Below, piece by piece: positions 18,670 to 22,588 of a stretch of DNA of 33,537 nt. The notes beneath the pieces are model-generated. The model had not been told where the DNA came from. It made no database searches and saw only the letters and a list, made by a program, of their open reading frames with translations. Position numbers and translations under genes: made by a program. Origin of the DNA: Sphingopyxis sp. GTDB taxonomy: Bacteria; Pseudomonadota; Alphaproteobacteria; Sphingomonadales; Sphingomonadaceae. Each line of letters opens with the position of its first letter. Within the stretch, counting starts at the first letter, position 1. Where the stretch lies: the NCBI GenBank assembly GCA_013821905.1, contig PNJO01000012.1, forward strand, positions 1-33,537. The letters are read 5' to 3'.

Positions 18670-18744
18670 TGGTGACCCCTACGGGAATCGAACCCGTGTT
18701 TCAGCCGTGAGAGGGCCGCGTCCTGACCGCTAGACGAAGGGGCC
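18670..18744 (-). tRNA. tRNA-Glu (anticodon CTC), CCA encoded
   Basis: Reverse complement GGCCCCTTCGTCTAGCGGTCAGGACGCGGCCCTCTCACGGCTGAAACACGGGTTCGATTCCCGTAGGGGTCACCA folds as a cloverleaf; loop CTCTCAC gives anticodon CTC. Confidence 0.97.
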
Positions 18745-18866
18745 CTGAGATGCTCGGGGCATGAATCGCGCGTCGGATGTCAGTTTTTCGGGCAATTGTC
18801 CATGCCGAATCGGGATTCGACGCGTCAATCGGCTGCCGGAGCGGCCTCGGCGGCGGCGGGCGGGGT

Positions 18867-18923
18867 GGAATTACGGTGGGAATTACGGTGCCAGTTTGGA
18901 TTACGGTGCCAGTTTACTAAATA
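18867..18923. repeat. REP-like sequence on the 3' side of the RAYT gene (partial tandem copies)
   Basis: GGAATTACGGTGGGAATTACGGTGCCAGTTTGGATTACGGTGCCAGTTTACTAAATA; 18900-18923 is a 24-nt perfect inverted match to 19669-19692. Confidence 0.88.
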
Positions 18924-19591
18924 ACCAGATTATCTTGTCGTTTTGGCCCACGTTTTTGTGCTTTGAGCGTTCGCCCTGTCCGCGCCTCCAACGCTTCGAT
19001 CCAAGCCTCGCTGCCGAGCGGCCTGCCGGACGTTTCGGACATCCGCAGTTGTCGCCAAGCGGTACCGTCGTCCCGTTCCTCGTCGAGGAAGGCAGCAAAG
19101 CTGCCATAACGATCGAGGGCGGGAGCAACCCTGACCAGTCCATCATCCTCACCCGCCAGATGCGCTGCAACGCTCGACCATCGCCAATCCTGCGCCCGCT
19201 TTACAAGCCTCGCCCGCACCGGATTGAGCGACACATAGCGCATCGCATGCGCCAGATGCTCCTCGCCCATCGCAACGGCGCCGAACCGGCCTTGCCACAG
19301 GTGGCCCGTCCAGCGATGCCGTGCATCGACGAAGCCGGTGTATCGCCGGTGCGTATCGGCAAAGGTCCGCCGCAAACCATCCTCATCGGCCGGTACGATA
19401 ATGATGTGGACATGGTTGGGCATCAGGCAATAGCACCACACCTCCGCCCCCGCTTTCTCGGCTGCTTGCGCTAGAAGATCGCGGTAGAGTGCATAGTCCT
19501 CATCCTCGAAAAACGTCGGCGCCCGGCGGTTGCCGCGCTGCGTAACGTGATAAGGAACTCCGGGAATCACGAGGCGAGGAAGGCGAGCCAT
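18917..19591 (-). CDS. REP-associated tyrosine transposase (RAYT / Y1_Tnp, TnpA_REP)
   Basis: MARLPRLVIPGVPYHVTQRGNRR, HUH motif CLMPNHVHIIIVP, RYVSLNPVRARLV with candidate catalytic Tyr; flanked by REP palindromes. Confidence 0.93.
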   Translation of the reverse strand: MARLPRLVIPGVPYHVTQRGNRRAPTFFEDEDYALYRDLLAQAAEKAGAEVWCYCLMPNHVHIIIVPADEDGLRRTFADTHRRYTGFVDARHRWTGHLWQGRFGAVAMGEEHLAHAMRYVSLNPVRARLVKRAQDWRWSSVAAHLAGEDDGLVRVAPALDRYGSFAAFLDEERDDGTAWRQLRMSETSGRPLGSEAWIEALEARTGRTLKAQKRGPKRQDNLVI

Positions 19592-19606
19592 CACACCGAC
19601 AATGCA

Positions 19607-19693
19607 CATTCTGTGTATTTGGTAAACTGGAACCGTAATGCCACCGTAATGCGTAATGGCATTCTGTGTATTTAGTAAACTGGCACCGTAATG
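19607..19693. repeat. Two tandem 34-nt REP copies on the 5' side of the RAYT gene
   Basis: CATTCTGTGTATTTGGTAAACTGGAACCGTAATG (19607-19640) and CATTCTGTGTATTTAGTAAACTGGCACCGTAATG (19660-19693), 32/34 identical. Confidence 0.9.
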
Positions 19694-20001
19694 TTGTTCA
19701 ACAATGGCGTATCGGGAACCTGTGACCTCGCTCCACCGAGGTGATCCATAAGACGCTGCTCAAGCCCCTTCGCCTGAGCTTTGCTCAGATTATTCGTGTA
19801 TAAAACTTCGCCAATCAATTCGCTCTTATCGATCGAGTCCGCGTGCGTGGAAAGCCGAGCGGGCGCGTCACCGCGACCGATGTATCGAATATTTCCTGCC
19901 TCATCGCGAAGAACATAGAGTCCCTGACCGGTCGCCTTGTTGTATGCGGCACCAGTGCCGCCAACGCCGCTGGGGAGGAGTCTACTTTCTGCGGCGATGC
20001 G
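19672..20001 (-). pseudogene. Truncated polymorphic-toxin-like C-terminal domain with GIY-YIG nuclease signature
   Basis: Hand translation: RIAAESRLLPSGVGGTGAAYNKATGQGLYVLRDEAGNIRYIGRGDAPARLSTHADSIDKSELIGEVLYTNNLSKAQAKGLEQRLMDHLGGARSQVPDTPLLNNITVPVY*. GLY...YIG...R...E...N signature; no start codon at the 5' end; stop lies inside a REP. Confidence 0.75.
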
Positions 20002-20382
20002 CTAAGCGAAGTCGACGACAATCTGCCTAAGGCCTTCGGGCGTAACATCGAAGCCGACCGACTGCCCCGGATTCACCACCAGGCCGTAGCCATCAGGGAT
20101 GCCTTGCAAAAACTCGCTCCCATTGATGCTCAGGCAGTATGGGGCCAGACGGGAGAAGTCACCGATGCGCTCCATCGCTGTGAAACAGGCCACCATCTGC
20201 GTGCCACCCTTGTCGAACAGGACGGGTTGGAATCCGCTTCCATCGGGCATGATCTCGCTTCCGCTGGGAACGATGACGTCGGATTCGCTGAACAGACGAA
20301 GGAAGTTGGGCATGGAAGAACGCCCAGTTCGGGCTCTCTCCAACTCGCTCTCTAAGGCGTTCACAGGTGTAAAACCGGCCAC
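20002..20382 (-). CDS. SseB-like protein
   Basis: NFLRLFSESDVIVPSGSE...FQPVLFDKGGTQMVACFTAMERI...GYGLVVNPGQSVGFDVTPEGLRQIV resembles the SseB N-terminal domain pattern (FTS..ER, NPG). Confidence 0.7.
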   Translation of the reverse strand: MAGFTPVNALESELERARTGRSSMPNFLRLFSESDVIVPSGSEIMPDGSGFQPVLFDKGGTQMVACFTAMERIGDFSRLAPYCLSINGSEFLQGIPDGYGLVVNPGQSVGFDVTPEGLRQIVVDFA

Positions 20383-20393
20383 GTCATCGCCCC

Positions 20394-20603
20394 CTAACCA
20401 AACGCCCTTGGATAAAATTTACGAGCCTTGGATTCTCGGATCGGCTCCGCCGAACGTTCATTCTGTTCCCAATAGGTGCCGCATACGCCGCACCGATGTA
20501 GGTATGCATGCCGCTCGATATTGGTTGCGATCTTAGGTGGCTGCTCGCCAGTTTCCCACTGGCGCCGGCACACCTTGCATCCCCGTTTCCCCCAAGGCAG
20601 CAT
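20394..20603 (-). CDS. Small zinc-ribbon-like protein, putative immunity protein
   Basis: MLPWGKRGCKVCRRQWETGEQPPKIATNIERHAYLHRCGVCGTYWEQNERSAEPIRESKARKFYPRAFG; CxxC...CxxC. The ATG at 20603 overlaps the upstream toxin-tail stop as TGATG; the track start at 20627 is the alternative. Confidence 0.6.
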   Translation of the reverse strand: MLPWGKRGCKVCRRQWETGEQPPKIATNIERHAYLHRCGVCGTYWEQNERSAEPIRESKARKFYPRAFG

Positions 20604-20722
20604 CAGAACTTCCTTACCGGTATCCATTCGCCATTCGGTCCGACCTTAAACATGACCGAGCCATTTGGCACTGCATTACCTCCAGGGATTACGAACTCGC
20701 GCGTGGGAATTACGGTGACAGT
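20603..20722 (-). pseudogene. Truncated C-terminal tail of a polymorphic-toxin-like protein
   Basis: Hand translation: TVTVIPTR-EFVIPGGNAVPNGSVMFKVGPNGEWIPVRKF*; the first residues are read out of a REP; stop overlaps the next ATG (TGATG). Confidence 0.55.
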
Positions 20723-20840
20723 TTACTTAATCCCCAATTGCGCTGGCCAGTTTGGTGGTTAAGTAAACTGTCACCGTAATTCCTGTCACCGTAATTCCGT
20801 CACCGTAATTCCCACCGTAATTCCGTCACCGTAATTCCCA
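20705..20840. repeat. BIME-like REP element: 25-bp inverted repeat plus tandem half-REP tail
   Basis: GGGAATTACGGTGACAGTTTACTTAA (20705-20730), 28-nt spacer, TTAAGTAAACTGTCACCGTAATTCC (20759-20783), then TGTCACCGTAATTCC / GTCACCGTAATTCCC / ACCGTAATTCC / GTCACCGTAATTCCC up to ~20840. Confidence 0.92.
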
Positions 20841-21119
20841 AAGTATAATTATCGAGGCGCCTTAACGATTTCTGAAGCAGAGCTTCGCCGTTTCGGCATC
20901 GATCATGCCGATATCACCGCAGCACAGCAGACGCGCTATGCCCGCTTCCGACAGGGTGGAGGAACTTTGACCTGGGAATCCCTACGCGAGATCGAGATCG
21001 GGTCGATGGTCGATGCGGGCATGGGACGGCGTTCGGCAACGAGGGCGGTTGATGCCGCCATTCGACAGCTGCAGGAATCGGGAGTACAAGGGCCCACCCG
21101 GATACCTTGGAGTAGATAA
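20835..21119 (+). pseudogene. 5'-truncated polymorphic-toxin-like C-terminal domain
   Basis: Hand translation: FPKYNYRGALTISEAELRRFGIDHADITAAQQTRYARFRQGGGTLTWESLREIEIGSMVDAGMGRRSATRAVDAAIRQLQESGVQGPTRIPWSR*; upstream in-frame TAA at 20832-20834 lies in the REP; stop directly abuts the next ATG. Confidence 0.6.
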
Positions 21120-21488
21120 ATGGCGCCAGAGATCGATGAATTTGGAAAGAAGATCATCCAGCTTGTTAGAGATCCGACGATCATGAGCGCCGAGATTATC
21201 AGAAATAAATTCTCTCGCTCGCCGACACGATTAAAACTCAATTCCTATGACGAAGAAATCGTGCAGGAGATATTGGATATTGTCATCCCGAAGGTGATCG
21301 ATAATACGATCTTTTATACTCTGCGAGCAATGGATGGCGGCGGCTTACGAATGATCTACCGGTCCGACGCTGGCAATGCCTGCGATTTGGACGAAGAAGG
21401 CATGGGAGAATTGGCTGGATGGCTCTTTGGGGACGAAGGATGGATCAAGACCTTTTCCCAGTATTCCACGGGGCAAGCCGACGAATAG
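21120..21488 (+). CDS. Putative immunity protein, paralog 1
   Basis: ATG immediately follows the toxin-remnant stop (TAAATG); 122 aa, ~77% identical by hand count to the next gene. Confidence 0.65.
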   Translation: MAPEIDEFGKKIIQLVRDPTIMSAEIIRNKFSRSPTRLKLNSYDEEIVQEILDIVIPKVIDNTIFYTLRAMDGGGLRMIYRSDAGNACDLDEEGMGELAGWLFGDEGWIKTFSQYSTGQADE

Positions 21489-21602
21489 CGGTATTGGGCG
21501 CGGATCTGATCGCTATTTCGCCGCAAATCCGCGCTTCCCGTTTCGGGGCAAAGCGGTGGCACTTTGCACCTTGTTAGGAATTTGCCCTGCGAGATCGAGA
21601 CA

Positions 21603-21971
21603 ATGACGCCAGAAATCGATGAATTCGGACGGAAGTTGATCGAGCTTGTCCGGGACCCGACGATCGACAGCGCCGAGGTTCTGAAGAATAGATTTTCGAA
21701 ATCGCCGGCGCGTCTGAAACTCAATACCTATGACGAAAAGACGGTCCAGGAAATTCTGGATATCGTGCTGCCCGATGTCATCGACGATACGATCTTTCAT
21801 GTCCTGAACGCGCTCGATGGCGGCGGCTTGCGAATGATCTATCAGTCCGACACCGGCAAGGCCTGCGATCTGGACGAAGAAGGCATGGGGGAATTGGCCG
21901 GATGGCTTTTTGGCGACGAGGGATGGATCAAGAGCTTTTCCCGGCATCCGACGGGACAAGCCGACGAATAG
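21603..21971 (+). CDS. Putative immunity protein, paralog 2
   Basis: 122 aa, MTPEIDEFGRKLIELVRDPTI...DLDEEGMGELAGWLFGDEGWIKSFS; same length and colinear with paralog 1. ATG at 21603. Confidence 0.65.
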   Translation: MTPEIDEFGRKLIELVRDPTIDSAEVLKNRFSKSPARLKLNTYDEKTVQEILDIVLPDVIDDTIFHVLNALDGGGLRMIYQSDTGKACDLDEEGMGELAGWLFGDEGWIKSFSRHPTGQADE

Positions 21972-22512
21972 TGGCATCGGATGCTGATTCGGCGGTGATT
22001 GCGGGTACGGTCCTTGCAATTCGTCGATGATCCGATCGCCTATTTCGTCGCCGACGGCGCGGCGATGCACGCGCTTTCGCCGGCCGAAGCCGAACCGCTG
22101 CAGCAGCAGGCGCTGGCCTATCGGCTAACGCGCCTGCTCCCGGTGATTGCACCGCTCGCGGCGCTCGCCGAGGCGCAGGGCCTGTCCGCCGACCCGAGGA
22201 CGCCCGCGCCGCCGAGCAGATTGCCCGAACCGCGCGTGAAGCCTGCGCCCGCACCAACGAAAATCCCGACCATGCGCCCCTCCACAGGACAGGGGCATTC
22301 CGAACGGCCTTTGAAGCGGCCAGCCCCACTCGAATGGGCCATCCGGCGAAGCGCGCAAAAGTTTAGAGAAAAGTTCGACCGCGGCGATTTTTTCTCTCGC
22401 CGATCCCGCGAAACTGGCGAACGGGCGCGTGCGACCGCGACGTCGGCGCGGCGCGCGAAATTGCGTGCACCGACTTTGCGCTCGGATATCGACGAAAGAA
22501 GCTTGAAGCCGA

Positions 22513-22588
22513 TGGTGACCCCTACGGGACTCGAACCCGTGTTTTCGCCGTGAAAGGGCGACGTCCTAGACCGCTAGACGAAGGGGCC
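22513..22588 (-). tRNA. tRNA-Glu (anticodon TTC), CCA encoded
   Basis: Reverse complement GGCCCCTTCGTCTAGCGGTCTAGGACGTCGCCCTTTCACGGCGAAAACACGGGTTCGAGTCCCGTAGGGGTCACCA; loop CTTTCAC gives anticodon TTC. Confidence 0.97.

What the first reader, a model, noticed from the sequence alone, without database searches (positions are those of the whole stretch)
19672..20001. Hidden GIY-YIG nuclease toxin domain without a start codon
Minus-strand translation gives GQGLYVLRDEAGNIRYIGRGDAPARLSTHADS...GEVLYTNNLSKAQAKGLEQRLMDHLGG...LLNN. This carries the GIY-YIG elements in order: GLY, YIG, an Arg in ARLSTH, a Glu in LEQRLM, and an Asn in LNN. The preceding GVGGTGAAYNKATGQ looks like a linker between a delivery protein and its toxin tip. 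There is no upstream start codon in frame (the preceding in-frame codon is the SseB TAG). It is absent from the supplied ORF list.
Basis: partly seen in the sequence, partly recalled or inferred. Interest (0 to 1): 0.75.

Follow-up and report, generated by a model that had tools for sequence, protein, structure and literature searches.

The report
Leftover fragment of bacterial nuclease toxin
This stretch of DNA really does encode most of a DNA-cutting toxin tip of the kind bacteria inject into rival bacteria, but it is a stranded remnant: it has no delivery protein, no start signal and no antidote gene, and its end is cut off by a mobile-element repeat, so it is most likely a dead toxin gene of a known family.

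Summary
The minus frame 19672-20001 is open for 109 codons, has no usable start codon, and encodes a GIY-YIG (URI-fold) nuclease domain. It is 53-70% identical to domains at the C-terminus of intact Rhs toxins (two Pseudomonas, Aggregatibacter) and of a non-Rhs Ramlibacter protein. All five Tox-URI1 motif positions (Y, YxG, R, KxxE, N) are present, and Foldseek ranks UvrC GIY-YIG first.

The working-toxin reading does not hold. The last ~30 residues, two confident helices in an intact homologue, are replaced by the mobile repeat ATTACGGTGCCAGTTTAC beside a RAYT transposase gene. The Imm26-type immunity gene that follows most homologues is absent. No Rhs repeat or T6SS VipA gene was found in this 90%-complete genome. 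The supposed linker is a conserved part of the toxin module.

The fragment lies in a 3.77-kb low-GC island between two tRNA-Glu genes that are 17-63 bp apart in 13 of 20 congeners. The island holds other toxin-immunity remnants. Start-less orphan tips are known (Rhs-CT orphans).

One unplanned result may be newer: in 301 related genomes this repeat occurs in 22, and its sites are enriched beside Rhs genes (5 within 5 kb against 0.14 expected).

The parts
19672..20001 (-). Orphan GIY-YIG (Tox-URI1-like) toxin-tip fragment, 109 codons, no start codon; real toxin homology is residues ~9-102, the last residues ITVPVY* are read from the mobile repeat
   Evidence: AlphaFold2 plus Foldseek
19607..19693 (-). 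RAYT-associated repeats (two copies of ATTACGGT-CCAGTTTAC...) that overlap and cut off the 3' end of the toxin fragment
18917..19609 (-). RAYT-like (REP-associated tyrosine) transposase, Y1_Tnp
   Evidence: Pfam PF01797 7.7e-10; NCBIfam REP_Tyr_transpos 76.7 bits, just below its cut-off of 80
18864..18930 (+). Repeat array at the other end of the RAYT gene, inverted relative to 19607-19693
   Evidence: I2, I3, D4, D5
20002..20382 (-). SseB-N-like protein, probable immunity gene of another (lost) tip; ends with TAG directly before the toxin fragment
   Evidence: Pfam SseB 1.5e-9, full-length match; immunity role is inference from position
20394..20603 (-). Small Cys-rich ORF whose ATG overlaps the stop of the preceding toxin tail; probable immunity gene; no Pfam match
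   Evidence: role inferred from overlap and order
20603..20704 (-). C-terminal tail (33 aa, TREFVIPGGNAVPNGSVMFKVGPNGEWIPVRKF*) of a second toxin, its upstream part replaced by repeats
   Evidence: inference from order
20703..20852 (.). Cluster of the same repeats, with a 32-nt inverted pair; breakpoint between the minus-strand and plus-strand remnants
   Evidence: I1, D2
20835..21119 (+). Second orphan toxin tip, also start-less, N-terminus ending at the repeats
   Evidence: 33% identical to an ORF on Bergeyella plasmid NZ_CP136427.1, E 2e-6
21120..21488 (+). Immunity-like protein paired with the plus-strand tip; its Bergeyella counterpart lies next to the homologous tip
   Evidence: 27% identity, E 2e-6 in a two-sequence comparison
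21603..21971 (+). Duplicate (77% identical) of that immunity-like gene
18745..22512 (.). 3.77-kb low-GC island between two tRNA-Glu genes
   Evidence: Spacer 17-63 nt in 13 of 20 congeners; GC 52-58% over most of it against 65-73% in the flanks
18670..18744 (-). tRNA-Glu(CTC), island border
22513..22588 (-). tRNA-Glu(TTC), island border

Best explanation
The frame is the remnant of a C-terminal GIY-YIG/URI nuclease toxin module (Tox-URI1 type) of an interbacterial polymorphic toxin, carried on a small foreign island inserted between two tRNA-Glu genes. Steps, with their status: (1) it once formed the tip of an Rhs-like or other secreted carrier, whose nuclease cut nucleic acid in rival cells unless an Imm26-type protein bound it (inferred from homologues); (2) it lost its carrier by displacement, leaving a start-less orphan (absence of start and carrier shown, displacement inferred); (3) a deletion ending at a RAYT-associated repeat removed its last ~30 residues and the immunity gene downstream (loss and the repeat junction shown, order of events inferred). 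It is now most likely untranslated and inert.
For: Homologues at 53-70% identity are C-terminal tips of Rhs proteins (L002, L004, L005) or of a 416-aa protein (L003). In L002-L005 the next gene belongs to one immunity family: L003 is Imm26 at 2e-6 in Pfam, and the others match it at 30-33% identity. Catalytic positions Y29, Y40-x-G42, R49, K78-x-x-E81 and N102 are all kept, matching the published Tox-URI1 motif 'Y, YxG, R, [RK]xxE, N' and its listed immunity Imm26 (PMC3482391). Predicted fold beta-beta-alpha-beta-alpha; top Foldseek hits are UvrC GIY-YIG (1yd6, probability 1.00) with I-TevI further down. The truncation falls at the repeat. An intact homologue is modelled far better (pLDDT 83, pTM 0.81, two C-terminal helices) than the window copy (63, 0.55). 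No Imm26, RHS repeat or VipA match in the genome. Island shown by tRNA spacing and GC.
Against: The window copy alone is only a sub-threshold Pfam GIY-YIG hit (E 0.068). Its dN/dS (~0.12) shows no decay, so the truncation is recent or that value reflects older selection. The Imm26 search of the genome had no positive control. The genome is a 362-contig draft, about 90% complete, so a carrier could be missing.
Confidence: 0.83

Rival explanations
1. Silent reserve cassette: as with orphan Rhs tips in Salmonella, recombination with a full-length toxin gene could re-fuse this tip to a carrier and put it back in use.
For: Start-less orphan Rhs tips have been shown to be re-deployed this way (PMC3967940); all catalytic residues remain.
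Against: No Rhs gene in the genome to recombine with; immunity gene and C-terminal helices missing.
Confidence: 0.08
2. Expressed standalone nuclease, made from a non-canonical start or by read-through of the in-frame amber stop of the SseB-like ORF.
For: The frame is continuous with the SseB-like ORF across one TAG.
Against: One-in-three frame coincidence; the SseB match is full-length and ends naturally; homologues are never fused to SseB; a nuclease without its antidote would be harmful.
Confidence: 0.04
3. Ordinary GIY-YIG enzyme (homing endonuclease, repair or phage T5orf172-type), not a toxin.
For: Generic fold matches include UvrC and I-TevI.
Against: The closest homologues are Rhs C-termini with adjacent immunity genes; no phage match.
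Confidence: 0.02
4. Assembly artefact that joined unrelated pieces at the short repeats.
For: Every remnant ends at the same repeats; draft genome of 362 contigs.
Against: The exact repeat core is only 18 nt and nearly confined to this locus in the genome, too short to mislead ordinary assembly; another genome of the family has a parallel layout (L058).
Confidence: 0.03

Closest known systems
Tox-URI1 polymorphic toxin domain (Zhang et al. 2012, PMC3482391)
   Same: Motif Y, YxG, R, [RK]xxE, N; linked to Rhs carriers and Imm26 in relatives
   Different: Window copy lacks carrier, start codon, C-terminal ~30 residues and immunity gene
Orphan Rhs-CT modules (Koskiniemi et al. 2014, PMC3967940)
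   Same: Displaced toxin tip without translation start or export signals
   Different: Those keep a linked immunity gene and a main rhs gene upstream; neither was found here
GIY-YIG domain of UvrC (PDB 1yd6) and I-TevI (1ln0)
   Same: Predicted core fold and catalytic residue order
   Different: Those are repair or homing enzymes in housekeeping or intron contexts
REP-associated tyrosine transposases (RAYT) and their repeats (PMC2817692)
   Same: Adjacent transposase flanked by inverted repeats
   Different: The repeat is nearly confined to this locus in this genome, unlike high-copy REPs

Membership tests
Tox-URI1 (GIY-YIG/URI toxin) | Y, YxG, R, [RK]xxE, N motif | tested here: met
   Y29, Y40-x-G42, R49, K78-x-x-E81, N102 in alignment A1 against the motif in PMC3482391
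Tox-URI1 (GIY-YIG/URI toxin) | GIY-YIG fold | tested here: met
   Predicted beta-beta-alpha-beta-alpha; Foldseek 1yd6 probability 1.00, E 0.011, model pLDDT 63; homologue model also ranks 1yd6 first but at only probability 0.77, E 0.29
Tox-URI1 (GIY-YIG/URI toxin) | C-terminal tip of a secreted carrier | tested here: not met
   True of homologues L002, L004, L005; in the window there is no carrier and the frame starts after a stop
Tox-URI1 (GIY-YIG/URI toxin) | Adjacent immunity gene (Imm26 or other) | tested here: not met
   Present in L002-L005; none in the window or genome (without positive control)
Tox-URI1 (GIY-YIG/URI toxin) | Nuclease activity and toxicity | not testable with these tools
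   Needs an assay
Orphan Rhs-CT/RhsI module | Tip homologous to full-length Rhs tips, without start signals | tested here: met
Orphan Rhs-CT/RhsI module | Downstream of a main rhs gene | tested here: not met
   No RHS_repeat match in the genome, which is about 90% complete
Orphan Rhs-CT/RhsI module | Linked cognate immunity gene | tested here: not met
RAYT element | Y1 (HUH) transposase flanked by inverted repeats | tested here: met
   Y1_Tnp 7.7e-10; REP_Tyr_transpos 76.7 bits against cut-off 80; flanking repeats

The most novel reading that the evidence does not exclude
In sphingomonads, RAYT-associated repeats (ATTACGGTGNCAGTTTAC) sit at the 3' borders of polymorphic toxin-immunity cassettes and act as breakpoints by which cassettes are displaced, shuffled or cut off. 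The window fragment would be one product of that process.
Probability: 0.25. Interest if true: 0.55.

Novelty: new member of a known kind. Interest (0 to 1): 0.3.

Why it matters
By itself it is one more decayed polymorphic-toxin cassette of a known class, useful mainly as a caution that a complete set of active-site residues in an unannotated frame need not mean a working toxin. It also shows stages of cassette turnover in one place: carrier lost, antidote lost, end cut by a mobile repeat. If the link between RAYT repeats and toxin cassettes holds up, it would suggest a concrete mechanism for how these loci gain and lose tips in sphingomonads, where the general account is only that cassettes recombine.

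Tried and rejected
Searches that found nothing: phages (no match); PDB by sequence (none); plasmids (only Bacillus at 31-32%); 400 other genomes of the family (no second copy). Weak matches of the 122-aa immunity-like protein in giant proteins were taken as spurious EF-hand/adhesin similarity. A search for the parent of the high-GC right end of the island gave one weak, interrupted match. Viral-contig searches with this domain failed four times because the machine did not answer, and one for the second tip failed likewise. I rejected read-through from the SseB-like ORF and a linker role for GVGGTGAAYNKATGQ. Integration at the tRNA 3' end is not shown: no duplicated tRNA end or integrase was seen in the island, although integrase-like ORFs abut the same tRNA-Glu in three congeners by eye (L014, L016, L028; not confirmed by a profile search). 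I also rejected the idea that the repeat's position 3' of genes is telling in itself: 27 of 48 repeats lie within 300 nt after a same-strand stop against 17% of random points, but REP repeats in general lie between genes.

Full report
OBSERVATION. The minus strand of 19672-20001 translates to RIAAESRLLPSGVGGTGAAYNKATGQGLYVLRDEAGNIRYIGRGDAPARLSTHADS...LLNNITVPVY*. It is open, it begins directly after the TAG of the SseB-like ORF in the same frame, and the first in-frame ATG/GTG/TTG is TTG at codon 62. Pfam alone gives only a sub-threshold GIY-YIG match (E 0.068).

HOMOLOGUES. A scan of 85,462 species genomes found six loci: Pseudomonas botevensis (70%), Ramlibacter MAG (68%), P. alliivorans (66%), Aggregatibacter kilianii (59%), a Verrucomicrobia MAG (53%) and a distant Mycolicibacterium match (39%). 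Extending the frames shows the domain at the C-terminus of 1639-, 1617- and 1707-aa proteins with Rhs-type repeats (Pfam RHS confirmed for L002; the other two read by eye) and of a 416-aa Ramlibacter protein without Pfam matches. In L002-L005 the next gene is a short protein of one family: Pfam Imm26 at 2e-6 for Ramlibacter and sub-threshold for L002 (0.044), while pairwise BLAST links L002, L003, L004 and L005. L006 also has a downstream ORF, only weakly similar.

IDENTITY. Invariant columns of the alignment include Y29, Y40, G42, R43, R49, H53, E81 and N102. Zhang et al. 2012 define Tox-URI1 by 'Y, YxG, R, [RK]xxE, N' and list Imm26 among its immunity proteins (PMC3482391); here the fourth element is K78-G-L-E81. 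AlphaFold2 models the window copy with strands 26-32 and 38-44, helix 46-53, strand 63-72 and helix 74-88 (mean pLDDT 63, pTM 0.55). Foldseek ranks UvrC GIY-YIG (1yd6, probability 1.00, E 0.011) first, with I-TevI at rank 11. The intact Ramlibacter domain is modelled better (82.8, 0.81) and has two further C-terminal helices, 118-123 and 127-138; its Foldseek search also ranks 1yd6 first but less strongly (probability 0.77, E 0.29).

CODING HISTORY. Against Ramlibacter, 93 codons differ at 20/16/48 sites by codon position, dN/dS about 0.12; other pairs are saturated at synonymous sites.

DAMAGE. In homologues LLN is followed by one variable residue, [IF], RSYxPxNPNA... and further residues, about 30 in all. 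In the window LLNN is followed by ITVPVY*, which is the repeat ATTACGGTGCCAGTTTACTAA. The repeat occurs in two copies at 19607-19693, in inverted form at 18900-18929, and again at 20703-20783. Between the copies at 18900 and 19610 lies a RAYT-like transposase gene. No Imm26-like gene is in the window at a meaningful E-value (best 0.20), and Pfam Imm26 does not ring in the genome, though that search had no positive control. RHS repeats and the T6SS sheath protein VipA are also not found; both searches had working controls, but the assembly is about 90% complete. CDI-type carriers were not searched for.

SURROUNDINGS. Two tRNA-Glu genes lie at 18670-18744 (CTC) and 22513-22588 (TTC). In 13 of 20 congeneric genomes the same pair is 17-63 nt apart; in the other seven the second tRNA-Glu was not within about 8 kb. 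Most of the 3.77 kb between them has 52-58% GC against 65-73% in the flanks, except the right end from about 21750, which is as GC-rich as the chromosome, and part of the RAYT gene at 60-63%. The island holds, on the minus strand, a 33-aa toxin-like tail overlapping the ATG of a small Cys-rich ORF, the SseB-like gene and the GIY-YIG fragment; on the plus strand, a second start-less tip with its immunity-like gene and a 77%-identical duplicate of that gene. The plus-strand pair is supported independently: Bergeyella plasmid NZ_CP136427.1 carries both homologues next to each other. Immunity roles for the other small ORFs are inferred from order only.

HOW IT MOST LIKELY WORKS, OR WORKED. By analogy with homologues, a carrier delivered the domain into a neighbouring cell where it cut nucleic acid, and an Imm26-type protein protected kin. 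[quoted passage not shown] The later truncation at the repeat removed the C-terminus and the antidote. Displacement and the order of events are inferred; the absences and the junction are shown. Such a fragment should be silent; even if read, a nuclease without antidote would be selected against.

A PATTERN BEYOND THE FINDING. The exact pattern ATTACGGTGNCAGTTTAC occurs in 22 of 301 genomes of the family, with no match of the reversed control. Of 31 site regions outside this genome, 13 hold a RAYT match, some short, and 7 an RHS match; 20 control regions shifted along the same genomes hold neither. Using listed Pfam RHS matches, 5 of 31 sites lie within 5 kb against 0.14 expected (Poisson p 4e-7; 4 against 0.10 at 3 kb, 6 against 0.20 at 8 kb). 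The list of RHS matches was cut off by the tool, so observed and expected are both lower bounds, and sites in one genome are not fully independent. Examples: L058, an Imm39 gene then repeats, RAYT, repeat, a 132-aa ORF that may be an orphan tip, and another small ORF; L062, a haemagglutinin-repeat protein with Tox-REase-5 then a 266-aa ORF and a repeat 4 nt on; L063, haemagglutinin repeats; L064, SUKH; L068, RHS. Other sites lie beside Abi_C, MazG_C or unrelated metabolic genes, so the association is an enrichment, not a rule. These loci were inspected by hand and partly by Pfam; controls were not scanned for SUKH or haemagglutinin. Two literature searches for RAYT or REP together with polymorphic or Rhs toxins gave no paper that reports it, judging from titles and abstracts, which is weak evidence of novelty.

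VERDICT. New member of a known kind, decayed; interest 0.30.

Noticed in passing
window 20835-21119 and 21120-21488 (+): A second start-less toxin tip with its own immunity-like gene; both have adjacent counterparts on a Bergeyella porcorum plasmid (NZ_CP136427.1). No Pfam family covers either.
   Followed up: partly
window 21603-21971 (+): A 77%-identical duplicate of the immunity-like gene 21120-21488, 114 nt downstream.
   Followed up: no
window 18745-22512: Island inserted between tandem tRNA-Glu genes; in congeners L014, L016 and L028 integrase-like ORFs abut the same tRNA-Glu(TTC), suggesting an insertion hotspot.
   Followed up: partly
L041-L087 (31 repeat sites in 21 genomes): RAYT-associated repeat ATTACGGTGNCAGTTTAC is enriched next to Rhs genes: 5 sites within 5 kb against 0.14 expected.
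   Followed up: partly
L058:3065-8099: Parallel layout in another genus: large protein, Imm39, two repeats, RAYT, repeat, possible orphan tip, small ORF, repeat.
   Followed up: partly
window 21999-22512: High-GC open frame at the right end of the island without a recognisable family; one weak interrupted match in a congener.
   Followed up: partly
L033:3000-4330 (Bergeyella plasmid): Repeated fragments of the same toxin tail upstream of the intact ORF, as if cassettes had been swapped there too.
   Followed up: no
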